From Pseudomonadota bacterium (GTDB lineage Bacteria; Bdellovibrionota; UBA1018; CAIMNF01), in NCBI GenBank assembly GCA_027486675.1, contig JAIXOQ010000017.1, positions 1-64,000 of the forward strand: DNA of 64,000 nucleotides, in the 5' to 3' direction. Positions 13,420 to 63,794 of this stretch are shown here, in pieces. Under the pieces are notes generated by a model, which was not told the DNA's origin, searched no databases, and saw only the letters and a program-made list of their open reading frames with translations. The position numbers and the translations under genes are program-made. Positions within the stretch are counted from its first letter, which is position 1. Each line of letters starts with the position of its first letter.

Positions 13420-14400
13420 ATGATCATTCTCAGTCTTCTGTCGACATGGATCTTCTCGTCTTTCAGTTTCGCTGATCTTCCACGGGTCAACCCCTTTTGT
13501 CTGGCCGCTGTTGACTCTTTTGAGCTCGAAGGAAAACTAGAAATCGACCCCGCCGAAGTTCAAACGATTCTTCGCTCCTTAATCTCTGAAACCAATGACC
13601 CTAGGCTTGAACTTCCTGAAGTCCCACGGAGGTTCTCGTACCAATCAGGAGCCCCGAGAAAGGCACAAACTGCGGCCGCTGCTTTAGACGAGATTCTTCA
13701 GGATCTGGAAAGCAGTAGACCTACAAGGCATGTTCTCTACTTTCAAGGCGAGGAAGCGATCTTAGGGTTCTATGCTCGCTATAAAAACCTCGCTCGATTC
13801 ATCGCAGCTCAACAAACTTCTTTTGAACCAGAGCTATGGGAGAAAATCTACCGTGCTGTTATCGGAAAGCTTGGTGCGCTTTGGTCTGCAAAGAAGTCGA
13901 TGATCTTTGGAGGGACTGCGGTTTCAGCAGGGCTCTTAAGTCGGTACACCTTAGGCATCGATGAGGTCACTGAGATCGGTACGGTTATTATAGGCCTAGT
14001 CCAGTCGGCAATAGGTGCGCTCGTCACCTACGGTCCTACTCGTGGGGCAAATGCATGGAGTGTGATCTCTAACGCAGCACTGACTCAAAACGACCGCCCT
14101 GTTTTTCCGGATTACTCCCCCTCTGAGGTCTTTCAGTTTTATAACCCTGGTGAATGGCAGTTCAACAAATCCCTTTTTACTGAGCCCACTGAAGCAGTCG
14201 GCAGCAGACAGTCTCCGATGGCTCTACTGAATGCACCCCCAGGCGTTACGGCAAAACATGTACGACGATACGCTCTTTCTGGGCGGCCTGAATTCATGGC
14301 GATCACCTCACAGGTCGCAACCAAGTCAGTCCTAGAGTCACTCATCTACGTCGATCAACAGGGCGGTAAACACTTCCTCTTATTTGTGAAGCCTCTCTAG
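13420..14400 (+). CDS. Secreted protein of unknown function with internal hydrophobic segment
   Basis: A protein of 326 residues. The start at 13420 gives a signal peptide (MIILSLLSTWIFSSFSFAD). An in-frame TTG at 13378 and ATG at 13384 would add a polar leader and are less likely. The mature part is globular up to about 150. A Gly/Ala/Ile-rich stretch follows (MIFGGTAVSAGLLSRYTLG and EIGTVIIGLVQSAIGALVT) that could be one or two membrane helices, and then a basic/aromatic C-terminal third. No family was recognised. The gene has its own promoter just upstream, and its stop overlaps the stop of the convergent neighbour by four bases. Confidence 0.65.
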   Translation: MIILSLLSTWIFSSFSFADLPRVNPFCLAAVDSFELEGKLEIDPAEVQTILRSLISETNDPRLELPEVPRRFSYQSGAPRKAQTAAAALDEILQDLESSRPTRHVLYFQGEEAILGFYARYKNLARFIAAQQTSFEPELWEKIYRAVIGKLGALWSAKKSMIFGGTAVSAGLLSRYTLGIDEVTEIGTVIIGLVQSAIGALVTYGPTRGANAWSVISNAALTQNDRPVFPDYSPSEVFQFYNPGEWQFNKSLFTEPTEAVGSRQSPMALLNAPPGVTAKHVRRYALSGRPEFMAITSQVATKSVLESLIYVDQQGGKHFLLFVKPL

Positions 14401-15620
14401 ATCATGAGCTGAGGTGGGAGCAGGCCATTCCCAAGGACCTCTTGGTAGGTCTTCCGCAACACTTTTGCTTCATCAAGAAGGCCCTCTACCGTAATTTTTG
14501 CTGTGGTCTCACTGCCAAGATCGCACGTGCTGCGGAGACGCGTATGGAGTAACCCCTTTAAAGTCTCATCCTGGGTTATATCCATAAGAAAGCCATCAAA
14601 GCCAAGAAGTACACGCTCTGGATCTTCCCTCCAGTAGAAGAAGAATAATCGATCGAGCAGGTCCTGTTCCTCCTCACTCTTCAGTCGCTTCCGTGTCGCT
14701 TCATACCAGTGGGTTTCCATGAGGTGAACATAAAGACGATTGTAAAACGGACTCAGAGTGTCAGTGCTGATGCCGAAGGTCTGAAATGTTTTTTCTGTGT
14801 TTTTGTTGTGGAGTTTCCCCGCACGGATCATCCCTTCTACCATTGCAGCATGCTGACCATCGTGGTCAAAGAGTAGCTCCGACCAATATTCGAACTTATC
14901 AGCCATACTGATGCCGGTTGCGACCTCAGAAAAAGAGAGTAGCCAAGCATGCTGATTCATAGCTCGTACAGACTTAGAGCGGAATACGACTGCATTCGTT
15001 TGAATCCACAGAGCTGGGTTCCGAATGACATATAGACGCTGAGTTACATATGGATCACGTGGTCCTAAGATCGCCACGAACGAAAGATTATATACGCTCC
15101 ACCGATCGAGGGCGGAGAGTCTGCTGCCAAAGATCTGAAGCATTTCCAGCGTAATGCGAGGCTTTCGTTGATCAAGAATCAAGCTCAAATCTTCCTTCAG
15201 TGACTTGAGAGCGCGGGATTGAAACTCCATTGCGACGGAAAATGCCATTTCTATTTTTTGATCCGTGAGAGTGACTCCAAAGTACTCTTGCTCTTTGGAA
15301 ACAAAACTCCTTGTTAAAAAATACTCTTTGAACTCCTCTAAGCTCTTCAAAGACAGTGGTGCATCTTCCAGCTCCTGAATCCGAAGTCTCATTTTACGAA
15401 GAGTCGGCAAGAGGAGATGAGACGCAGCTTTGGCCTCCGTCGTAGCACTCTCCCCTTTCGTCAAAAGCCAAAACTTCAGTGCGTTTTCATAGTCCTCGTC
15501 GTAATCGAAACCTCCGTTTACGAGCTGACCGCAACGAATCTGACCATAAAGGTCATCTGAAGAAGCAAATGCTTTGGTCCCTATCGTGAAAGAAAGGATG
15601 AGAGCGAGCAGACGGAACAT
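14397..15620 (-). CDS. Secreted protein of unknown function
   Basis: A protein of 407 residues with a signal peptide (MFRLLALILSFTIGTKAFAS, cleavage after AFA or FAS). The mature protein is predominantly helical and charged. It contains one His/Asp cluster (ELLFDHDGQHAAMVEG, about 250-265) that could bind a metal, and two Cys (QIRCGQL near the N-terminus, RSTCDLG near the C-terminus) that may form a disulphide. No family was recognised. A promoter-like pair (TTGACC, 17 bases, TAGGTT) sits so close to the ATG that the message would be almost leaderless. Confidence 0.65.
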   Translation of the reverse strand: MFRLLALILSFTIGTKAFASSDDLYGQIRCGQLVNGGFDYDEDYENALKFWLLTKGESATTEAKAASHLLLPTLRKMRLRIQELEDAPLSLKSLEEFKEYFLTRSFVSKEQEYFGVTLTDQKIEMAFSVAMEFQSRALKSLKEDLSLILDQRKPRITLEMLQIFGSRLSALDRWSVYNLSFVAILGPRDPYVTQRLYVIRNPALWIQTNAVVFRSKSVRAMNQHAWLLSFSEVATGISMADKFEYWSELLFDHDGQHAAMVEGMIRAGKLHNKNTEKTFQTFGISTDTLSPFYNRLYVHLMETHWYEATRKRLKSEEEQDLLDRLFFFYWREDPERVLLGFDGFLMDITQDETLKGLLHTRLRSTCDLGSETTAKITVEGLLDEAKVLRKTYQEVLGNGLLPPQLMI

Positions 15621-45475: not shown

Positions 45476-46687
45476 TTGCTGGCACTATTGCTCGCCCTAA
45501 TTGGTTTCGCGGCATTCGAGAGTCCCGAACAACTTCTCTCTGAAGAATCGATTCGATGCCGGCTCATCGCTGAAGAAATAACAAGCTTCGCCCCTCCCGA
45601 TATCGTTACAGCAATTGCAAGTCTGCCGTACGCCTATGCCCCGGCCGCAGCGGTTCATCCAAAAAATTGGGGTGATAGAAGCGTGCCAGCCTCGACACTG
45701 CCCACTCTCTACAACTGGAATTCTTCGATTTCCGCTTCCCCTGTTTCCCCTATCGCTTCTTTAGATCGCCTGGAACAGGCTCTGACGGCATTTCATGGAT
45801 CCAACTGGCGTAGAGAAAATACTCACGGTTCTTTACGCAAGATTTATAAAACGCTCAAACTAAAAACCAAAGTAAATCGGCAGTTGGCAGCCCTGACTGA
45901 ACTTTCGGCCCAGTACTCTACCCTGCTGAATGGTTTAGTGGATGAACGTTTGAAGCGCTCCATTTCCGGGGTGGACCCACTGACCAATCGCGTGCTCGTT
46001 GAGCTTGTACTTCTCAATGCTTTAAGGGCATCGAACTTCGGCTGGCCCGATCTGTGGGCCGTTTCTCAGGCTGAAGGATCAAAAGACGTGCCGAACATCC
46101 AGGATTTAGAACTCTTGGTCTCAGATTGGCTTCTGCGAGCACAAAGATTTCTAAGTGGGATGGACGGACTTGGAAAGTCCGGCCTCATCCTTCCCTACCT
46201 CGGTGAAAGAAGTCGCCTTGAGCTCAATTTTGTAGCAACCCTCCCTATCCTCACTGTCGAGTCCGCTACCACCACCGGTCATGCTGATGGATTAGTTCAC
46301 ACCCCCCTTGAGAAAGGTCTTCACGACCTCCTTGACCATGCCCCCTCCATTTGGACTGCTTTCAGTGGCGAACCTCTCGGGCCATTGTTGAAACGTTACT
46401 TCAGCCTGATGAGCATCTATCAGAAGGCTCTTAGCAGCGCCAAAGCGCGCGAAAGAGAGTGGATCGCAGACCTTTTGTTCTCAGTTCACGAGCGACCATC
46501 TTCCTTCCGATTCTTAACGACCCCTGAAGAGTTCTTACAAAATCTTGAAGAGACAGCCCTTCAGTCGATCTTCTATCGATCCAGTGTTCCAGGGGACTAC
46601 ACCCACAGCTTCGACACCCAGGCCTCTGAGCAACGCATCCAAGAGATCAAGAAAGCTTTGAGTCGCATCAAAAGATCTATGCCTTAG
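45476..46687 (+). CDS. Secreted protein of unknown function, TTG start
   Basis: A protein of 403 residues. The TTG start at 45476 is supported by AAAGGAG six bases upstream and yields a short signal peptide (MLALLLALIGFAAFES). The mature protein is predominantly helical with leucine-rich stretches; no domain, metal site or repeat was recognised. It is a lone gene between tRNA-Gly and the RAYT-like gene. Its size and export signal resemble those of several other unknown secreted proteins in the window, though I see no clear alignment with them. Confidence 0.65.
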   Translation: MLALLLALIGFAAFESPEQLLSEESIRCRLIAEEITSFAPPDIVTAIASLPYAYAPAAAVHPKNWGDRSVPASTLPTLYNWNSSISASPVSPIASLDRLEQALTAFHGSNWRRENTHGSLRKIYKTLKLKTKVNRQLAALTELSAQYSTLLNGLVDERLKRSISGVDPLTNRVLVELVLLNALRASNFGWPDLWAVSQAEGSKDVPNIQDLELLVSDWLLRAQRFLSGMDGLGKSGLILPYLGERSRLELNFVATLPILTVESATTTGHADGLVHTPLEKGLHDLLDHAPSIWTAFSGEPLGPLLKRYFSLMSIYQKALSSAKAREREWIADLLFSVHERPSSFRFLTTPEEFLQNLEETALQSIFYRSSVPGDYTHSFDTQASEQRIQEIKKALSRIKRSMP

Positions 46688-47433: not shown

Positions 47434-47591
47434 CATTCAAAAACCCTTGTGATCTGTTTTCTCGGGCGGCACCCGTCCATGGGCAGATCACGTCGCTCTC
47501 GGTTCCGCATCCTGCTCCACCGCTGCACATTAAGCGCAGTTGCCTTCTCGGGCTCCTGCCCTCGAAACCAAATCACAAGGGTTTTTGAATG
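47434..47591. repeat. 158-bp palindromic element with perfect 20-bp terminal inverted repeats
   Basis: The first 20 bases (beginning CATTCAAAAACCC) are the exact reverse complement of the last 20. The similarity continues inward, with a few mismatches, for another ~15 bases. Two small inner hairpins (CGGG..CCCG near 47461 and GGGC..GCCC near 47550) complete the structure. No target-site duplication is obvious. It begins 18 bases after the tRNA-Arg and contains no open reading frame. It resembles a miniature transposable element or a REP-type palindrome. I noticed no second copy in the window. Confidence 0.6.
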
Positions 47592-47619: not shown

Positions 47620-47647
47620 CACGGGACCGCGACCAGCCGTGGTTTTT
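47620..47647 (+). terminator. Possible terminator downstream of tRNA-Arg
   Basis: A 5-bp stem (CACGG/CCGTG) is followed by GTTTTT. It is short, so the call is weak. It would end transcripts from the tRNA-Arg side and abuts the stop of the minus-strand HNH gene. Confidence 0.3.
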
Positions 47648-48650
47648 ACGAAGGCTTCAATTCCGACCCTCCCTGCCGAATTCCATTTGGCACCGCAAGC
47701 CCCAAGTCGAGCGCGGCCTTTAGGTTATGCGCCGGACATAAATGACGAAGATTCCTAAGCTCTGTTTTTCCACCGAATGAGAGCGGTGTCTGATGATCCA
47801 CCTGCAAATGCGCCCGCGATGGGCAACGGGTATGTGTGACGGGAGACACATATTCACACTGTCCACCCGACCTCGCATGGATCTGGCGTTTGAAGCTCAG
47901 CGGGATGAAGCGTGAGGTGGTCGGCAAAACCGCGGCTGGACGGGATTTTTTGGCTTGTGTCGGTTCTTCGAATGAAGCTCCCTCTGACTCGACCTTCCCG
48001 AGGCTTCGCTCCTTCTTTTCGATCAGTGTCTTTAGGGCTTCAGTCAATAGGTTCGCAGTCGAGTCTGCTCCCACCAGTTCGCAAGCATGGTAGAGCAGCC
48101 TCATTCCTTCTTCATCTAAAAACACTTTAATCTCTGTGTGCGTTGCTGTTACGACACGAGTGGATTCTTTTAGCCTAGGCGTCTCTGGTAATGAATATTG
48201 CGATAACAGAAACTTCTCTGTCTCCCTCTTTGATTTCCCAGCAATGGCCGAAAGCAGCTCATTTTGTTCCTCTGTAGTCAGCTCATGGCCCACCGATTTT
48301 TCTTCTTTCATAAATCTCTGAATCTGAGTTGCCCCGGTTAAAGTCAGTTCGCCGGATTCAATCATTCCCTTTGCCTTTTCATTCTGTCTGGCTAAACGCA
48401 TCGCACCGAAACGCTCATAGGCGGAGGACTCGGAATACCCAAGTTCGCGCTTCACATATTCAAAAAGACTTGGGTAGGACAATAGTGCGTAGGCCTTGCT
48501 TCGATCCACCTCCTCCAGATGAGTCACCAGTGTCGCAGTGGCGCGTTGTTCGATGCGGGATAACGCGAAAGTTGCGTGCAGAAGTTCAAGGTCATTGAGG
48601 GGGAGAGTGTGTGAATCCTGGCTGGAATTGGCTTTGGTTTGTTTCTTCAT
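47646..48650 (-). CDS. HNH endonuclease
   Basis: A protein of 334 residues from Met at 48650; a further 19 residues are open upstream without typical features. The first ~230 residues are helical (DLELLHATFALSRIEQRATA, ELGYSESSAYERFGAMRLAR). The C-terminal part carries the HNH nuclease: a zinc-like Cys pair (QCEYVS and TRCPSRAHL) and the catalytic HLQVDHQTPLSFGGKTELRN followed by LRHLCPAHN. The fused helical N-terminus is a type I recall from Bdellovibrio-like genomes, where such genes can be multicopy. Function (defence, mobile or competence-related) is not shown. Confidence 0.85.
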   Translation of the reverse strand: MKKQTKANSSQDSHTLPLNDLELLHATFALSRIEQRATATLVTHLEEVDRSKAYALLSYPSLFEYVKRELGYSESSAYERFGAMRLARQNEKAKGMIESGELTLTGATQIQRFMKEEKSVGHELTTEEQNELLSAIAGKSKRETEKFLLSQYSLPETPRLKESTRVVTATHTEIKVFLDEEGMRLLYHACELVGADSTANLLTEALKTLIEKKERSLGKVESEGASFEEPTQAKKSRPAAVLPTTSRFIPLSFKRQIHARSGGQCEYVSPVTHTRCPSRAHLQVDHQTPLSFGGKTELRNLRHLCPAHNLKAALDLGLAVPNGIRQGGSELKPS

Positions 48651-49021
48651 TTTAAAATCATAACCCCGTGTTTCTGAGACGCCTCGCTGCCCGTAATACT
48701 TCGTCAAAATGGATTTTTGATTTCAAAAGACAGTTGAGGTGAGATCAGCACACTCAAACGAAACTTGGGCGCCAGAGCGAGAATTCTTTTGTTCAAGGGC
48801 TATTCGAAAAGTCGATATAACAAGAAGTCGTCAATCAGAAAAATAATTTTGGCGAAAAGATCTCATTATTTTTCTGAGGCGACTCACATTGCGATTGAGT
48901 ACTTCTTATCCTCGTTAGGTCAAGAATCTGCTCAAAAGCATCATCGCAAAAGACTCAACGACCACAGCTGAACCTAAGAATCACTCGACCCAATCCCCCT
49001 CCCCTTGGTACCTTCTCACGC
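48651..49021. other. Intergenic stretch with no supported gene
   Basis: About 370 bases between the HNH gene and the first tandem paralogue. A 68-residue open frame at 48765-48971 has no recognisable features or good ribosome site and is not called. Near 48980 the 10-mer ATCACTCGAC recurs, as it does ahead of the next two paralogues. Confidence 0.5.
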
Positions 49022-50110
49022 ATGATTTCCTTCGTTTTTGCTTTAATGACGGCCCCATCGTTAGCCACCGCTGGACTGTTATTTGATCAGCTATTTCTAG
49101 TAGTGAATAATTGCCGAAACGCTGCGGATCCGGAGCAACGGGTACGCACAAGACAGATCCAAAAGTTCCTTCTCGAGGCAGGATTTAAAGAGAAGCAGCC
49201 TAGTTTTACGCTTAGTGAATTAGATGAGATTGGCTCTGCCACGCCACAGTCGAATATAGATAAAGCTGCGCAAAGTTTCGCGCAGGAGGCTCTAGCGCCT
49301 CACGTCACACGGCAGGTTGGGTGGCCCAAGAAGGAATTTCTGAGAGCCCTTCGTGTATCTCAACTCAAAACAAAAGATTTTTTGACTCTAAAGGACTCTC
49401 CGGTCTGGCACCTTTATGAGGATAAGGTTCGAGTCGAGTGGAAAGCTTATCCAACGGGGATTGCAAACGAACTAGGTACTCTGCCATTTCCTATTGCAGC
49501 TTTTCTTGCGTCTGCCCCTGGACTCAGGGTCCGAGGATGGACAAAAGAGCTGGACACGACGAGTGCTTCGAGTTGGAAGAAGCCCGTCTCGTCTTTGCTC
49601 AGCGGACTATTGTCCGACTCTCAACTCTTGGACTACAAGGAACTCTTCGCGTCCGGGAAGCTTGAATCGCCAGAGCTTAGAGATACTCACAACTCTGCCT
49701 TCTTAAAACTGGCAATCGACTTTTCTGTTCTTCGCTTCATTCAAGACGAACTCTTTGGTAGCTCGATGTGGGTAGACGGCAGCATTGCTCCTTGGATGAT
49801 TGCACTTCAGGCCGATTTTCCTTCAGTGATTCAAGCTCGGAAGCAAATTCTTGAATTCTTTAAAGATTTAGAGAAAAGCCACTCATATGACGATTTCGGC
49901 AGGTATATGGGGAAAGATTGGCATGCTAGCAAACCTACGATTAGGTCCCCGAAGGAGTTCTATCTCTATGTGGAATTTACACAGAAGTACTTATTCTTCC
50001 TGAAAAGAGAACCTGAAGAGTTCGTTCACAGCTTAAGATACGGCGCAGAAGAATGGGCTCCGAAACAGTTTCAAAGACTAATCGAGCTCAGACGGCAGAT
50101 TCAGATTTAA
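49022..50110 (+). CDS. Tandem secreted family, copy A, unknown function
   Basis: A protein of 362 residues. The short signal peptide lacks basic residues (MISFVFALMTAPSLATA, cleavage before G). It is paralogous to the next two genes: NCRNAADPE near residue 30, PFPIAAFLASAPGLRVRGW near 155, DFSVLRFIQDELFGSSMWVD near 238, and the C-terminal RLIELRRQIQI. Copy A is the most divergent of the three. The whole protein is helical with many Leu and charged residues. No domain family was recognised. Confidence 0.7.
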   Translation: MISFVFALMTAPSLATAGLLFDQLFLVVNNCRNAADPEQRVRTRQIQKFLLEAGFKEKQPSFTLSELDEIGSATPQSNIDKAAQSFAQEALAPHVTRQVGWPKKEFLRALRVSQLKTKDFLTLKDSPVWHLYEDKVRVEWKAYPTGIANELGTLPFPIAAFLASAPGLRVRGWTKELDTTSASSWKKPVSSLLSGLLSDSQLLDYKELFASGKLESPELRDTHNSAFLKLAIDFSVLRFIQDELFGSSMWVDGSIAPWMIALQADFPSVIQARKQILEFFKDLEKSHSYDDFGRYMGKDWHASKPTIRSPKEFYLYVEFTQKYLFFLKREPEEFVHSLRYGAEEWAPKQFQRLIELRRQIQI

Positions 50111-50132
50111 GGTCCCACGTCGATCTCTCTAG

Positions 50133-50202
50133 GATTTAAACCGCAATCATTTTGCTAAATGATCACTCGACTTAGCTCCCCCATCTCTGCAAGATTCCTT
50201 GC
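50133..50202 (+). repeat. Intergenic repeat copy 1 ahead of paralogue B, with hairpin
   Basis: 70 bases, 66 of them identical to the copy at 51258-51327 by eye. It contains a perfect 7-bp hairpin ATCATTT/AAATGAT at 50146-50163 with a 4-base loop, then ATCACTCGAC 31 bases before the ATG. Between the two copies the loop changes but both stem arms stay intact. It probably includes the promoter or an operator of the gene. Confidence 0.7.
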
Positions 50203-51264
50203 ATGATTTCCATCATTTTTGCTCTGATGACGGCCCCTTCATTAGCCCATGCGGGCCCAATGTTTAATCGGCTGTTCGTAGCCGTGCATCAATGCAGAAA
50301 TACAGCCGCTCCAGGGTTGAGAAAGCGCACTGTAAGTGCGAGAGAATTCCTGAATGCTGCAGGGTTTTTGAGCAATCAGGCCGTATTTAGTAAGCAGGAG
50401 CTGTTTGACCTAACCCGGCTAAGAAAAAATGGCTTGTATGTCGATGTTAAAAGAGACCTCTACTTTAAAAGAGACCTCACACTAAAAAATGAGAGAAAGG
50501 TACAGACGAAGCATTACCTTAATGCGCTTCTAGTAACGATGCTAAGTGATGATGCGATAAAGAAGCTCCGGGACTTCGGAGGCAGCACCTCAGAAATAGA
50601 ACCAGAGGTGCTTGAAGTACTTTCTGAAAAAAGTGGCCCGCTTAAGGCTGCCGAAAAAATAGATGCCTTGCCATTTCGGATTGCCACCTTTCTTGCGAAC
50701 GCTCCTGGATTAAACGTTCAGGGATGGACAAAATTGAAAAATTCAGGAGTAGCTTGGAGTTGGTACATCTCGATCCATTCATTGATTTCTGATCTCACTC
50801 ATGATTTTCAATCGGTAGCCACAAAACACTTTCCGATCCATGAGTCCTCAGCAAGCGAGGAGCTTCAGAAAATAAGTGCTTCTACTTTGATGAAGATGGC
50901 GATCGACTTCTCTGTGCTTCGCTTCATTGAAGAGGAGCTCTTTGGGTCAGCAATGTGGGTAGATGGAACTTTTGCACCTTGGATGTTTGGGCTCAATACG
51001 TTTGCTCCTCAGATCATTCTGGCGCGCCCGAGGATCGTTCAATTTTTTAATCAGATCGATCAAAGTCCTACGACTCTTGTCTATAGAAACTCTGGCGAGA
51101 GGGCTGGAAGGCAGATTGAGATTCGCACCCCGAAGGAATTCTATAATTATCTCGATCATCTTTTGTGGCTCGCACAAAACAACATATCGATGGGTCGGAG
51201 TGAAAATCTGGCACTCAAGCAGCTTGAACAGCTCGTCGAGCTCAGACTGCAGCTTCAGATTTAA
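50203..51264 (+). CDS. Tandem secreted family, copy B, unknown function
   Basis: A protein of 353 residues. Signal peptide MISIIFALMTAPSLAHA then GPMFNRLFVAVHQCRN. Shared blocks with copies A and C: PFRIATFLANAPGLNVQGW, DFSVLRFIEEELFGSAMWVD, and the C-terminal LVELRLQLQI. It is closest to copy C, also at DNA level (the stretch around 50805-50850 matches that at 51925-51970 in most bases). An in-frame stop ten codons upstream of the ATG and lack of another start fix the N-terminus, although there is no Shine-Dalgarno sequence. Confidence 0.7.
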   Translation: MISIIFALMTAPSLAHAGPMFNRLFVAVHQCRNTAAPGLRKRTVSAREFLNAAGFLSNQAVFSKQELFDLTRLRKNGLYVDVKRDLYFKRDLTLKNERKVQTKHYLNALLVTMLSDDAIKKLRDFGGSTSEIEPEVLEVLSEKSGPLKAAEKIDALPFRIATFLANAPGLNVQGWTKLKNSGVAWSWYISIHSLISDLTHDFQSVATKHFPIHESSASEELQKISASTLMKMAIDFSVLRFIEEELFGSAMWVDGTFAPWMFGLNTFAPQIILARPRIVQFFNQIDQSPTTLVYRNSGERAGRQIEIRTPKEFYNYLDHLLWLAQNNISMGRSENLALKQLEQLVELRLQLQI

Positions 51265-51327
51265 ACCGCAATCATTTGCCTAAATGATCACTCGACTTAG
51301 CTCCCAAATCTCTGCAAGATTCCTTGC
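51258..51327 (+). repeat. Intergenic repeat copy 2 ahead of paralogue C, with hairpin
   Basis: The second copy of the 70-base repeat. The 7-bp stem ATCATTT/AAATGAT is at 51271-51288 with loop GCCT (TGCT in copy 1), followed by ATCACTCGAC 31 bases before the ATG. Its first bases contain the stop codon of copy B, showing that the duplicated unit included the gene end. Confidence 0.7.
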
Positions 51328-52383
51328 ATGATTTCCTTCATTTTTGCATTGATGACGGCCCCATCTTCAGCCTTTGCCGGTCCAATGTTTAATCGGATGT
51401 TCCTAGCGAAGCACCCGTGTGAAACCTTCGCCGATCAGGACATGAGGGACCGCCCTATAGCTGTAAGAAGTTTCTTAAGCTCAATTGCTTATAGCAATCA
51501 GGCCGTATTTAGTTTGTTGGAATTGGATGAGATTAACGCACCAGTAGGAGCCGACGACCAGCTCGCTTACCTTGTAGAAGGTCCACAACTCAAAAGTCGG
51601 CAGGAGGAGAAGACGAAAGATTATCTAGACGCTCTTTTTATAGCGAGGCTGAATGACACGGAGCTAGGAAAGCTCAGGGCCCTGAGTGTCATTAAGCACG
51701 CTTCTCTAAGAAAAGCGACCTGGCTACTCTTGGATCAAAACGATGGTCCACAATATGGCGGCCTTAAAATCGGCGCATGGCCACTTCGGATCGCATCCTT
51801 TCTAGCGGCAGCGCCTGGTTTAAATGTTCAAGGATGGTCGGAAGTTAAAGACGCAGAAACAATCGCAAATTGGGCCAAGCCTCTCCAGCTTTTGATCGCC
51901 GGTCTTACATCTAATTTTCAATCTGTCGCTACAAAACACTTCCCCATGAGTGAGTCTTCGGCGACAGAGGCGCTTCAGGAAATAAGTGCTTCGTCTTTGA
52001 TGAAAATGGCGACCGACTTCTCTGTGCTTCGTTTTATTGAAGAGGAGCTCTTTGGGTCATCGATTTGGGTGGACGGAACTGTTGCACCTTGGATGAAAGC
52101 GATTAAAGCCTACTACCCCAAAATGATTCAGGCGCACCCGTTTATACTTCAATTTTTGAAGCAAATGGATCAGAGTCTTGCGGCTCGTGAATATCGAATG
52201 TTGCCTGAGAACAGGGGACGAAGAAATATTGAGATTCGTACCCCAAATCAATTCTATGCCTATCTTTCCTTTCTTTTGAAGTCTGCACAAGAGCAAGACC
52301 AGGGCGAAAACTGGGCACTTAAGGAGCTTGAAAAACTCGTGGAGCTGAGACAGCAAATTCATTTCGAGAGGAAGTGGCTTTAG
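51328..52383 (+). CDS. Tandem secreted family, copy C, unknown function
   Basis: A protein of 351 residues. Signal peptide MISFIFALMTAPSSAFA then GPMFNRMFLAKHPCET. It keeps the shared blocks PLRIASFLAAAPGLNVQGW, DFSVLRFIEEELFGSSIWVD and ELRQQIHF. The C-terminus is slightly longer and basic (ERKWL). It ends five bases before the convergent msrA stop. No catalytic motif is evident in any of the three; the Cys at residue ~31 is the only conserved Cys. Confidence 0.7.
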   Translation: MISFIFALMTAPSSAFAGPMFNRMFLAKHPCETFADQDMRDRPIAVRSFLSSIAYSNQAVFSLLELDEINAPVGADDQLAYLVEGPQLKSRQEEKTKDYLDALFIARLNDTELGKLRALSVIKHASLRKATWLLLDQNDGPQYGGLKIGAWPLRIASFLAAAPGLNVQGWSEVKDAETIANWAKPLQLLIAGLTSNFQSVATKHFPMSESSATEALQEISASSLMKMATDFSVLRFIEEELFGSSIWVDGTVAPWMKAIKAYYPKMIQAHPFILQFLKQMDQSLAAREYRMLPENRGRRNIEIRTPNQFYAYLSFLLKSAQEQDQGENWALKELEKLVELRQQIHFERKWL

Positions 52384-52388
52384 CTCAC

Positions 52389-52985
52389 CTAAAACTTCAA
52401 ATCCCGCACCTTGTGGTTGTCGTATCCACCGGGATGCTTCACTAGATATTTCTGGTGATCCTCATGTGCGGGCCAAAAAGTTCCTGGCGATCTGATCTCT
52501 GTGACGATCGGCTCCTTCCAGGCCTTAGAAGATTCGACTTTTTTCTTAAATAGGTCGGCCCTCCGCTTCTGGTCGTCACTGGTGGTGAAAATTGCCGACC
52601 GATACTGGGTACCCACATCGTTTCCCTGCCGATTCAATGTCGTGGGATCATGCATCTTAAAAAAATGATCGAGCAGCGTTTCATAGCTCACTTGAACCGG
52701 ATTAAATTTGATCTCCACGCTCTCAGCATGCCCTGTGCTGCCATCGTGGGTTTCATCGTAGTGTGGATTCTTCTTATGCCCACCGGCAAACCCCACACGT
52801 GTTGCAACCACACCGTCTATTTTTCTAAAGTACTCCTCCATCCCCCAATAGCAGCCGCCTGCTAAAATCGCTGTTTCAGTCTGAGGTGGCGCAAGGGGCA
52901 CAGCTTGGCTTTTGAGCATCAGATTCCATTGTAAAACAGCCACCACTGCCCAACCGTAGATACTCATTTTCGCTTGCCTCGACAT
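52389..52985 (-). CDS. msrA: Exported peptide methionine sulfoxide reductase A
   Basis: A protein of 198 residues from the Met at 52985, which has a GGGGGCG ribosome site; the longer open frame upstream is not family-like. The active-site motif AILAGGCYWGMEEYFRKIDG (catalytic Cys in GCYWG) and NDVGTQYRSAIF are diagnostic. The N-terminus carries a hydrophobic segment (MSIYGWAVVAVLQWNLML then KSQA), so the enzyme is probably exported or membrane-anchored. It repairs oxidised methionine in proteins. Confidence 0.93.
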   Translation of the reverse strand: MSRQAKMSIYGWAVVAVLQWNLMLKSQAVPLAPPQTETAILAGGCYWGMEEYFRKIDGVVATRVGFAGGHKKNPHYDETHDGSTGHAESVEIKFNPVQVSYETLLDHFFKMHDPTTLNRQGNDVGTQYRSAIFTTSDDQKRRADLFKKKVESSKAWKEPIVTEIRSPGTFWPAHEDHQKYLVKHPGGYDNHKVRDLKF

Positions 52986-53048
52986 CACGCCCCCCATTCC
53001 TGGATTAGGTGTTGGAACCACCTCTTTTATTACAGTAATCTTTTCTTC

Positions 53049-53408
53049 ATGGCTAAAAGTCACCCAGGCGCGTGCGAAATCAGAACCGTACGTTTGCTGA
53101 AACACAAACGCGCAACAGTCTTTGCCGCATGGCAGGACAAAAAAGCCCTAGACCAGTGGTGGCCCGATCACGGCTTTAAGCGCATCTTTCATGTCAAAGA
53201 AAATGAACGAATCGAGTTCGATCACAACGATGTGCCCAAGTTCCTAGCTATCGTGACTTTCGTCGATGAGTTTCAGAATACAAAAGTAACGCTCCGCATG
53301 ATGTTTAAGACTCCTAAAGAGTGTGAAGCTGAAAAGGTGACTCGGGTCGCTGAAACTGAAGCGACCTTTGATCGGCTCGATGCGTTTTTAAAATCTCTCC
53401 CCGCCTAA
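53049..53408 (+). CDS. AHSA1-type SRPBCC protein
   Basis: A protein of 119 residues. The START-like AHSA1 pattern is visible: TVFAAWQDKKALDQWWPDHG, and RMMFKTPKECEAEKV near the C-terminal helix. It is shorter than the usual ~140-150, with the long beta-hairpin region around the ligand cavity shortened. It ends two bases before tonB and probably begins that operon. Function unknown; the AHSA1 group has many ligands. Confidence 0.7.
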   Translation: MAKSHPGACEIRTVRLLKHKRATVFAAWQDKKALDQWWPDHGFKRIFHVKENERIEFDHNDVPKFLAIVTFVDEFQNTKVTLRMMFKTPKECEAEKVTRVAETEATFDRLDAFLKSLPA

Positions 53409-54031: not shown

Positions 54032-56266
54032 GTGACGCCATTTTCATTCTTTCTTCCGTTCGCAGCTCTGAGCTTTGTCTCATCAGCTCACGCATCGAGT
54101 CAGTACGAAGGTTATGTCCGCACTCGTGGAACTAAGGCGCCGCTCAAACAAATCAGCCTCTTTGTTCTGCCTCTAAAAATCAGAATCACGACCGATGACA
54201 AGGGCTATTACAAAACTCCTGAGATCCCCGAAGGGCCGTTTGAGTGGGTCGTCAATGCATCAGGTCACGAACGTTATACAGAAAACGCAACTTCTACTGC
54301 AGTCTCCGAACTCGTCACAAAGGATTTTTATCTTGAGCCCTTAAGTTCAGGAGTTTTTGAAACTACAATCACGGCTCAAGAAACCAACGATTCCTCCCGG
54401 CAAACTTTAAAAACAAAAAAGGCTCAAAGTTTACCGGGCGCGGGACTTGATCCAGTTCGCGCAATACAAAACCTACCCGGAATCAACAGATCCAGCGGCT
54501 TTAGTGCACGGGTCATCGTTCAAGGCAGCGCGCCTCAAGAGACTCGGTACCAGATCGATGGCCATGAAGTGCCACTCATCTTTCACTTCGGAGGCTTAAG
54601 CTCTGTCGTTTCGCCCGATCTCTTAGAGTCCGTCGATTTCTATGCCGCAGGTTACCAAGTCAATTTTGGTAGAGCGCTTGGCGGTGTGATCAATCTACAA
54701 ACTGCTGACCCTTTCAAGGAACGCTGGAGAGGCAGCGCATTTGTGGATGTCTTTAACGTCGGAGGACACGCTGAAGGACCCATCGGGGAAAAGAGTTCCC
54801 TCTCTGTTTCAGGTCGCTATAGCTACATCGGTCCAGTTTTAGGAGCAGTCGCAAAAGCGAGTGACTCTTTTAACCTCACTACAGCTCCTACTTTCTATGA
54901 CTTAAGCTCTGTCTTCACCACAGAACTTTCAGATACTTTAAAGTTTAAGCTATTCAGTACTGCAAGCCGAGACGAACTCAAATTCGTAACAGCAAAAGGT
55001 TTTGGCGAAGATCCACTTCTTCGTGGTGCCTTTCGCAATGAGGTTTCTTTCTTTCGATTTATTCCGCAGCTCCTCTACCGCCCTGATTCACGTACAGAGG
55101 GGCGCCTATCATTAGGTATTGGCAATGACTCGATCTTAAATGAAGTCGGCACGCAGTTCTTCAAGCTAAATAACACCGCCGTAACCGCAAGAGGACAGTA
55201 CTCAAAACAAGTGGTCGATGAAGTTTGGAAAGCATCGATCGGAATGGACAGTCGCTTGAACTGGGCTGATATCGACCTCTTGCTGCCAAGCGTCGTGAAC
55301 TCAGGTGGTATTTTAAATCCGCTCTCAACAGGCGAACAAAGACGCACCTCACTTAAAAATGTGCAAACTCATCAAATCGGGGTCTACACCAATCACGAAA
55401 TCAGACCCGGCGCGCAGTCACCCTGGACGATCACCCCAGGTCTCCGATTTGACTACTACACGACTCTTAAAGCCCTTGAAGTTGCCCCTCGTATCGCTAC
55501 GAAATACAAATGGGCAGAGGCTTGGAGTTTAAAAGCGGCAACGGGTCTTTACAGCCAACAGCCGGGTGAGGGCGAATCCTCTAAAGATTATGGTAATCCA
55601 AATTTAAAGCCAACTCGTGCAGTGCATGCTACGGTCGGCGCAGAACGAAGCCTGGATCTAGAAGTAGGACAAGGATCAAAGATCTATAGCGGAGTTTTTG
55701 GAAGATGGTTTGATCGACTCGTTGTGCCGGATACCTCCACTGTTTATTCAAACTTGGGCAAGGGGCGCGCAATCGGATGGGAAAACCTGATCACGGTGGA
55801 ATCAAAGCCTTGGTTTGGCTGGATTTCTTACATGTTATCCCGCAGCACAAGGTGGAACCCAAGCCAACCTGAGGCTTTGTCGCAGTTTGACCAGACTCAC
55901 CTTTTGACACTGATCGGTGGTGTTGATCTTCCACGGCGATGGAAGATTTCAGCTAGAGTCCGATATGTCACCGGTACCTTAGTCACGCCGATCACTGGAT
56001 CTGTTTTTGATGCGGACAATGACGCCTACATACCGCTTCGTGGTCCCGTGTATTCGCAAAGACAAAGTCCTTTTTACATGGTGGACCTTCGGATTGATAA
56101 ACAATGGATCTTCACGAAGTGGACCTTGTCTCTTTACTTAGATATTCAAAATCTACTCAATCGCGCCAATCCCGAAGGACTGCAATACAGCTACAACTAT
56201 TCCGCGAGCGAAAGCGTCGCAGGCTACCCGATCCTTCCTACTTTCGGCTTAAAAGGAGAGTTCTAA
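54032..56266 (+). CDS. TonB-dependent outer-membrane receptor
   Basis: A protein of 744 residues from a GTG start, with signal peptide TPFSFFLPFAALSFVSSAHA. A carboxypeptidase-regulatory-like beta domain (SQYEGYVRTRGTKAPLKQIS) precedes the plug (GAGLDPVRAIQNLPGINRSS, YQIDGHEVPLIFHFGG and VNFGRALGGVINLQT). The barrel fills the rest and ends in Phe (LKGEF). It imports an unidentified ligand. No clear TonB box with a known sequence was fixed. The operon neighbours are TonB upstream and a lipoprotein downstream. Confidence 0.92.
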   Translation: MTPFSFFLPFAALSFVSSAHASSQYEGYVRTRGTKAPLKQISLFVLPLKIRITTDDKGYYKTPEIPEGPFEWVVNASGHERYTENATSTAVSELVTKDFYLEPLSSGVFETTITAQETNDSSRQTLKTKKAQSLPGAGLDPVRAIQNLPGINRSSGFSARVIVQGSAPQETRYQIDGHEVPLIFHFGGLSSVVSPDLLESVDFYAAGYQVNFGRALGGVINLQTADPFKERWRGSAFVDVFNVGGHAEGPIGEKSSLSVSGRYSYIGPVLGAVAKASDSFNLTTAPTFYDLSSVFTTELSDTLKFKLFSTASRDELKFVTAKGFGEDPLLRGAFRNEVSFFRFIPQLLYRPDSRTEGRLSLGIGNDSILNEVGTQFFKLNNTAVTARGQYSKQVVDEVWKASIGMDSRLNWADIDLLLPSVVNSGGILNPLSTGEQRRTSLKNVQTHQIGVYTNHEIRPGAQSPWTITPGLRFDYYTTLKALEVAPRIATKYKWAEAWSLKAATGLYSQQPGEGESSKDYGNPNLKPTRAVHATVGAERSLDLEVGQGSKIYSGVFGRWFDRLVVPDTSTVYSNLGKGRAIGWENLITVESKPWFGWISYMLSRSTRWNPSQPEALSQFDQTHLLTLIGGVDLPRRWKISARVRYVTGTLVTPITGSVFDADNDAYIPLRGPVYSQRQSPFYMVDLRIDKQWIFTKWTLSLYLDIQNLLNRANPEGLQYSYNYSASESVAGYPILPTFGLKGEF

Positions 56267-62888: not shown

Positions 62889-63794
62889 ATGTCATTGGCC
62901 TTAGTTTTAACGCTAGCTCAGTTCTCTATTGGGATGTCATTTGCATCGGCTCTGCCCCCAAACTGGGAGGTCCTGCCGGGTGGAGGCGTAAGATACATCA
63001 ATTGCAGAGGCATCGTAGAGAACAACCCAGCCAGGAGGCGTTTCATACAAGAAATCATTTCCTACGACGAGGAGCTGAACGTTAAAAGACAGCAAACCTT
63101 AGCCCAGATCTTAGGCCAAGAGACCAACTATTTGAAGCGTCGCAATTCCGCTCAAGCGAAGAAGGCTCGGTCACTCTTAGTTGAGGTTGGCCTAGCACAA
63201 GAGATAAAGAATTCAGATGGGATCACGATCGATGCCGATCTACTTCTTCTTCAACTAGGCGAACTGGTTCCTCCTAAAGAGGTGTCTCCGTCTTTAGAAA
63301 TGTTGCAATCGATCGTGGAGCTCGACGAAAAGTCTAAAATCAACTCTTGGTTCCCAGAAAACTCAAAGTTTCTCAGGAGTAATGCGGGCGCTGCACTGCC
63401 TCTCACTCCTGAGCAATTCGAGGAGTTCAAATATGAACTCAATATCTCAAGCAAGCGCTACTTACTTTTGCTGGATTCATTAAAAACAGCTGCAATAATC
63501 ATCGATATTTTTAGAAACTCCACCAGTGCCGACAGTGAGATGAGAAGCATTGGCGCCGAAATGATTGATAAACTTTGGCTCGCAACTACCTACGTGCGCA
63601 CCTCTTTTGCCGCCTTATTGGCAAAGTATACCATTGGGACGTACTTCTCTGATGAAGTGAAGGACCTCACAGAAGACAACTTCAGAGAGATGCTTCAAAG
63701 CTTTCAGTATGAAAATTTTCCGAACCAAACCTTCCACGATTTACAGCAAGATCTGGTCGAAAACATTAAACAGCTGACTGATGTGAATTATTAG
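62889..63794 (+). CDS. Secreted protein of unknown function
   Basis: A protein of 301 residues with signal peptide MSLALVLTLAQFSIGMSFASA (cleavage before LPP). A different-frame ATG at 62870 (MAKNYPY) would give a more typical basic n-region, so a small frameshift at the start is possible. The mature protein is helical and charged, with no recognised motif. It resembles in size and style the other unknown secreted proteins here. Unique Cys at about 38. Confidence 0.65.
   Translation: MSLALVLTLAQFSIGMSFASALPPNWEVLPGGGVRYINCRGIVENNPARRRFIQEIISYDEELNVKRQQTLAQILGQETNYLKRRNSAQAKKARSLLVEVGLAQEIKNSDGITIDADLLLLQLGELVPPKEVSPSLEMLQSIVELDEKSKINSWFPENSKFLRSNAGAALPLTPEQFEEFKYELNISSKRYLLLLDSLKTAAIIIDIFRNSTSADSEMRSIGAEMIDKLWLATTYVRTSFAALLAKYTIGTYFSDEVKDLTEDNFREMLQSFQYENFPNQTFHDLQQDLVENIKQLTDVNY

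What the first reader, a model, noticed from the sequence alone, without database searches (positions are those of the whole stretch)
49022..52383. Three tandem paralogues of an unrecognised secreted family
Copies A, B and C (351-362 residues) share a signal peptide type, a central FxVLRFIxxELFGS-like block, a PGLxVxGW block and C-terminal ELRxQI. B and C are the most similar. Tandem expansion of exported proteins with fast divergence suggests a role at the cell surface or against another organism, such as effector, adhesin or immunity.
Basis: partly seen in the sequence, partly recalled or inferred. Interest (0 to 1): 0.6.

Follow-up and report, generated by a model that had tools for sequence, protein, structure and literature searches.

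The report
Three private secreted orphan paralogues
A bacterium of the Bdellovibrionales (the order of predatory Bdellovibrio) carries three neighbouring, diverged copies of an apparently exported helical protein that has no detectable relative in any genome searched; they are real and under selection, but what they do remains unknown.

Summary
Three intact ORFs (362, 353, 351 aa) at 49022-50110, 50203-51264 and 51328-52383 (+) are homologous along their whole length (A-B 38%, A-C 35%, B-C 49% identity). Each has an 18-residue hydrophobic N-terminus ending AxA-G and a single Cys at position 31. Divergence is highest at third codon positions and pN is below pS, so these are real, constrained proteins; no sign of positive selection.

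No relative was found in Pfam, NCBIfam, PHROGs, PADLOC, PDB, 369 genomes of the phylum, GTDB, IMG/VR, phages or plasmids, and no fourth copy in this genome. The host is a Bdellovibrionales MAG. AlphaFold gives a low-confidence all-helical model without a PDB match.

New here: the 68-nt leaders of B and C differ at only 4 sites although synonymous sites differ by about 57%. The leader holds a dyad found exactly nowhere else in the genome and a hairpin touching the AUG. B and C apparently arose by duplication at a GATTTAA microhomology.

Best reading: a lineage-restricted, exported, co-regulated helical family, possibly acting on prey or other cells (inferred). The same genome carries a second private exported family with an HDxxH-like motif.

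The parts
49022..50110 (+). paralogue A, 362 aa, putative exported protein
50203..51264 (+). paralogue B, 353 aa, putative exported protein
51328..52383 (+). paralogue C, 351 aa, putative exported protein; convergent with msrA (52389-53105, -)
50135..50202 (+). leader of B, 64 of 68 nt identical to the leader of C
51260..51327 (+). leader of C (its first bases are the end of B)
50146..50163 (.). dyad ATCATTT-TGCT-AAATGAT upstream of B
   Evidence: only exact copies in the genome are these two
51271..51288 (.). dyad ATCATTT-GCCT-AAATGAT upstream of C; arms kept, loop changed
48980..48998 (+). block ATCACTCGACCCAATCCCC upstream of A (counterparts at 50162-50180 and 51287-51305)
51313..51328 (+). 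hairpin TGCAAG-ATTC-CTTGCA touching the start codon of C (same before B)
50133..50139 (+). GATTTAA, one end of the inferred duplication unit; also 50104-50110 (end of A) and 51258-51264 (end of B)

Best explanation
A, B and C are a genome- or genus-restricted family of Sec-exported, all-helical proteins in a Bdellovibrionales bacterium. A is the older branch; B and C came from a later tandem duplication whose ends lie in the sequence GATTTAA, at the stop codon and about 70 nt before the start (inferred from the junction). Each gene keeps its own leader, which in B and C is under stronger constraint than silent sites, so the three are probably expressed together from copies of one regulatory element (inferred). 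After export and cleavage after AxA, the mature proteins (about 333-344 aa, one conserved Cys near the N-terminus, conserved core around DFSVLRFIxxELFGS-x2-WVDG-x2-APWM) would work in the periplasm or outside the cell, possibly on prey or competing cells, with variable segments giving different specificities (inference from lineage and family pattern only).
For: Full-length homology; AxA-G N-termini and single Cys31 in all three; position-3 excess and pN<pS; no relative in 97 relatives, all 369 held genomes of the phylum, GTDB pattern scan, IMG/VR, phages, plasmids; only three copies in the genome; leader identity 64/68 against pS 0.57, binomial 5e-19; dyad and leader block unique in the genome; GATTTAA at the junctions; sister genomes lack this stretch next to the shared TonB operon; all-helical models; a second private exported family in the same genome.
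Against: Signal peptides lack positive n-regions and no SD is seen; the models are low confidence (pLDDT 51 and 63), so even 'all-helical' is provisional; nothing in the neighbourhood (pgsA, cobalamin adenosyltransferase, RAYT-like transposase, HNH protein, msrA, TonB operon) indicates predation or contact; leader identity could come from gene conversion instead of regulation; 'private' rests on a genus with one held genome.
Confidence: 0.35

Rival explanations
1. Ordinary periplasmic or envelope proteins that evolve fast under relaxed constraint; tandem copies are incidental and have no role against other organisms.
For: Purifying pN/pS, no positive selection; housekeeping neighbours; exported orphans are common in this window.
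Against: Leaders and core blocks are kept far better than silent sites, and three copies are retained intact.
Confidence: 0.35
2. The conserved leader is a recombination block: repeated gene conversion between B and C keeps the leaders alike, as homology blocks do in tandem immunity-gene arrays, and no regulation is involved.
For: Conserved DNA blocks of about 55-100 nt are linked to recombination between tandem esaG genes (PMC9484751); the block here extends about 47 nt into the gene.
Against: The signal-peptide region beside the leader has pS about 0.47, not converted; dyad arms are kept while its loop changes; part of the block is shared with diverged A.
Confidence: 0.25
3. Array of immunity-like proteins, each neutralising a different toxin of other strains.
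For: Tandem strings of diverged paralogues, accumulated even without the linked toxin, occur in known immunity arrays (PMC9484751).
Against: No toxin, secretion gene or defence family nearby; no relative among known defence proteins.
Confidence: 0.08
4. A, B and C are decayed, motif-less cousins of the genome's other private exported family (407-aa protein and paralogues with an HDxxH-like motif).
For: Same layout by eye: export signal, Cys about 12 residues into the mature protein, a DG-x4-P-like block (WVDGSIAPWM), then a late TPxEF block; the 403-aa neighbour at 45476-46687 shows the HD motif.
Against: Profile-profile comparison gives nothing: E 0.71, probability 0.07%; E 0.69.
Confidence: 0.1
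5. Recently acquired cargo of a mobile region beside tRNA-Arg.
For: GC 45-47% against 51% (sd 1.8) for neighbours, RAYT-like transposase, HNH protein and a repeated inverted-repeat element next door; no synteny in sisters.
Against: No integrase, no att repeats, no phage or plasmid relative; other private exported genes in this window also have low GC.
Confidence: 0.2

Closest known systems
Secreted helical proteins of unknown function in Bdellovibrio bacteriovorus, e.g. Bd0434 (up on prey attachment; PMC12546842)
   Same: Order (Bdellovibrionales), export signal, helical prediction, no known function
   Different: No sequence relation was tested directly; Bd0434 is not described there as a tandem family; expression of A, B, C is unknown
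Tandem immunity-gene arrays (esaG, tipC; PMC9484751)
   Same: Diverged tandem paralogues with conserved DNA blocks at gene ends and more variable middles
   Different: No toxin or secretion system linked; no homology found; function untested
HDxxH-like exported family of the same genome (407-aa protein, 14397-15620, and copies on contig C13)
   Same: Private to this genome, exported, N-terminal Cys
   Different: No HDxxH in A, B, C; no profile similarity

Membership tests
Any Pfam, NCBIfam, PHROGs or PADLOC family | Profile score above curated cut-off or E < 0.001 | tested here: not met
   (best: DUF7726, E 0.16, one member only)
Any family with a solved structure | Sequence or fold match to a PDB chain | tested here: inconclusive
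   No sequence hit; no Foldseek hit below E 0.5, but models have pLDDT 51 and 63
HDxxH-like exported family of this genome | Profile similarity | tested here: not met
HDxxH-like exported family of this genome | HDxxH-like motif | tested here: not met
   Motif scan lists the 403-aa, 407-aa and C13 proteins but none of A, B, C
Tandem immunity arrays (esaG/tipC-like) | Linked or cognate toxin | tested here: not met
   No toxin or defence family among the neighbours scanned
Tandem immunity arrays (esaG/tipC-like) | Neutralises a toxin | not testable with these tools
   needs an experiment
Sec-exported proteins | N-terminal signal with positive n-region, hydrophobic core, AxA | tested here: inconclusive
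   Hydrophobic core and AxA present in all three; no K/R in the n-region; no SignalP run

The most novel reading that the evidence does not exclude
A previously undescribed, genus-private family of exported helical proteins that diversifies by tandem duplication under a shared, conserved leader (dyad plus start-codon hairpin) and serves as a contact or predation factor with copy-specific targets, one of several such private families in this genome.
Probability: 0.2. Interest if true: 0.6.

Novelty: new member of a known kind. Interest (0 to 1): 0.35.

Why it matters
Much of what predatory and related bacteria export is without a name. A family that is real, under selection, private to one lineage and tied to a conserved leader is a clean candidate for lineage-specific interaction proteins, and the leader gives a handle for asking when they are made. 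If the proteins are ordinary envelope components, the case still shows how quickly exported families turn over in this order.

Tried and rejected
Homologues by profile and pattern search: none; the marginal hits (e.g. E 0.003 in G339) fall in a PhoR-like histidine kinase or in frames with stops. Foldseek matches (nuclear receptors, alpha pore-forming toxins) have probability below 0.4 and come from low-confidence models, so they are not used. A regulon for the leader block or the dyad: the block has no other site with fewer than 3 mismatches (10 others at 3, against 5 for the reversed-pattern control), and the two other dyad hits (1 mismatch) lie inside coding sequence (an lptE-like ORF and a 290-aa ORF), so no regulon. 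Link to the HDxxH-like family or to the 403-aa neighbour: not significant. Link to other exported ORFs (E 0.012 over 40 columns, probability 3.5%): rejected. An upstream start codon: B and C have an in-frame stop ten codons upstream and no ATG/GTG/TTG between; A has none either. Rfam: only the two tRNAs reach threshold.

Full report
They align over their whole length, with 35-49% identity, and share all the blocks described, the C-terminal one loosely. Position-specific divergence (third codon positions 0.44-0.60, second 0.30-0.40) and pN below pS in every pair (A-B 0.42/0.72, A-C 0.42/0.71, B-C 0.30/0.57) show that the frames are real and constrained. The most variable stretch is alignment columns 125-155, where pN is about equal to pS; with so few silent sites this is not evidence of positive selection.

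Export: each N-terminus reads MIS-x2-FALMTAPS-x-A-x-A-G, a short hydrophobic stretch ending in AxA. It lacks the usual K or R at the start, and no longer start is available in B and C because of an in-frame TAG ten codons upstream. No clear ribosome-binding site precedes the ATGs. I take export as likely but not shown. Each protein has exactly one Cys, at position 31 of the precursor.

Family: no match in Pfam, NCBIfam, PHROGs or PADLOC, none in PDB sequences, none in phages or plasmids by tblastn, none in IMG/VR or GTDB by conserved-peptide patterns. A profile search of 97 relatives and then of all 369 genomes held for the phylum found only these three copies; the few hits at E 0.003-0.5 are short, lie in frames with stops or in a PhoR-like kinase, and are taken as chance. 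AlphaFold on three sequences gave pLDDT 51 (full length) and 63 (C-terminal 215 residues), helical throughout, without a credible PDB match.

Host and place: relatives of the TonB-dependent receptor downstream (54032-56266) are in MAGs titled Bdellovibrionales, Oligoflexia and Bdellovibrio, so the genome belongs to that group; its genus has no other held genome. In the sister genus the TonB operon is conserved (48-49% identity for the receptor) but none of the genes from 43.3 to 53.4 kb lies next to it. The profile does not hit any ORF in those loci. The array is thus in a stretch that is not shared. It has lower GC (45-47%) than neighbouring conserved genes (51%, sd 1.8) and a poorer fit to their codon usage. 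Next to it are a RAYT-like transposase, tRNA-Arg, an inverted-repeat element with partial copies elsewhere in the genome, and an HNH protein.

The leaders: B and C share 64 of 68 nt before the ATG, though their silent sites differ at 57% (binomial 5e-19). Within it the dyad ATCATTT-N4-AAATGAT keeps its arms while the loop differs; no other exact copy exists in 2.7 Mb. A block ATCACTCGAC-YYARYY-CCC is shared with A too and is unique in the genome with 0-2 mismatches; it was chosen after the fact. A hairpin TGCAAG-ATTC-CTTGCA ends on the A of the start codon in B and C, and these leaders fold better than shuffles (z -2.0 and -2.9; A: 0.1). Either this is regulation acting per gene or a block kept alike by recombination; unconverted silent sites right beside it (pS 0.47) favour regulation. 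GATTTAA occurs at the end of A, 70 nt before B, and at the end of B joined directly to the leader of C, which is the expected scar of a duplication of the B unit.

A second private family: the 407-aa exported protein at 14397-15620 (-) has paralogues on contig C13 (about 156, 337, 344 and 380 kb) and none in the other 368 genomes of the phylum. Four of its five members carry an HDxxH-like motif. The 403-aa orphan at 45476-46687 has a similar motif but no significant profile link. A, B and C show no significant link to either.

Function: not shown. Bdellovibrio exports many proteins of unknown function, including a secreted alpha-helical one strongly raised on prey attachment (Bd0434; PMC12546842), and this makes a role towards other cells reasonable but not demonstrated. 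I therefore accept the observation, accept 'unrecognised exported family', and treat 'against another organism' as one of two about equally likely readings.

Noticed in passing
window 14397-15620 (-); G000 contig C13 at about 156, 337, 344 and 380 kb (L086, L087, L085, L095): Exported family with an HDxxH-like motif (DHDGQH, NHDRIH, DHDLGH, HDDGH), five members in this genome and none in the other 368 genomes of the phylum; one copy (L087) lacks the motif through an internal gap and one (L086) ends early at a TAA with homology continuing beyond.
   Followed up: partly
window 45476-46687 (+): 403-aa orphan, possible export signal, with DGLVHTPLEKGLHDLLDH resembling the HDxxH-like family; no relative in 57 related genomes and no significant profile link.
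   Followed up: partly
window 47434-47591: Element with 41-nt inverted repeats (83%) just after tRNA-Arg and the RAYT-like gene; partial copies on five other contigs, two at identical contig-end positions (C7 and C19, 33-102).
   Followed up: partly
window 47646-48707 (-): HNH endonuclease-like protein with weak Pfam match (E 7e-4, below cut-off).
   Followed up: no
window 62889-63794 (+): 301-aa exported orphan with a signal lacking K/R, like A, B and C; no profile similarity to them.
   Followed up: partly
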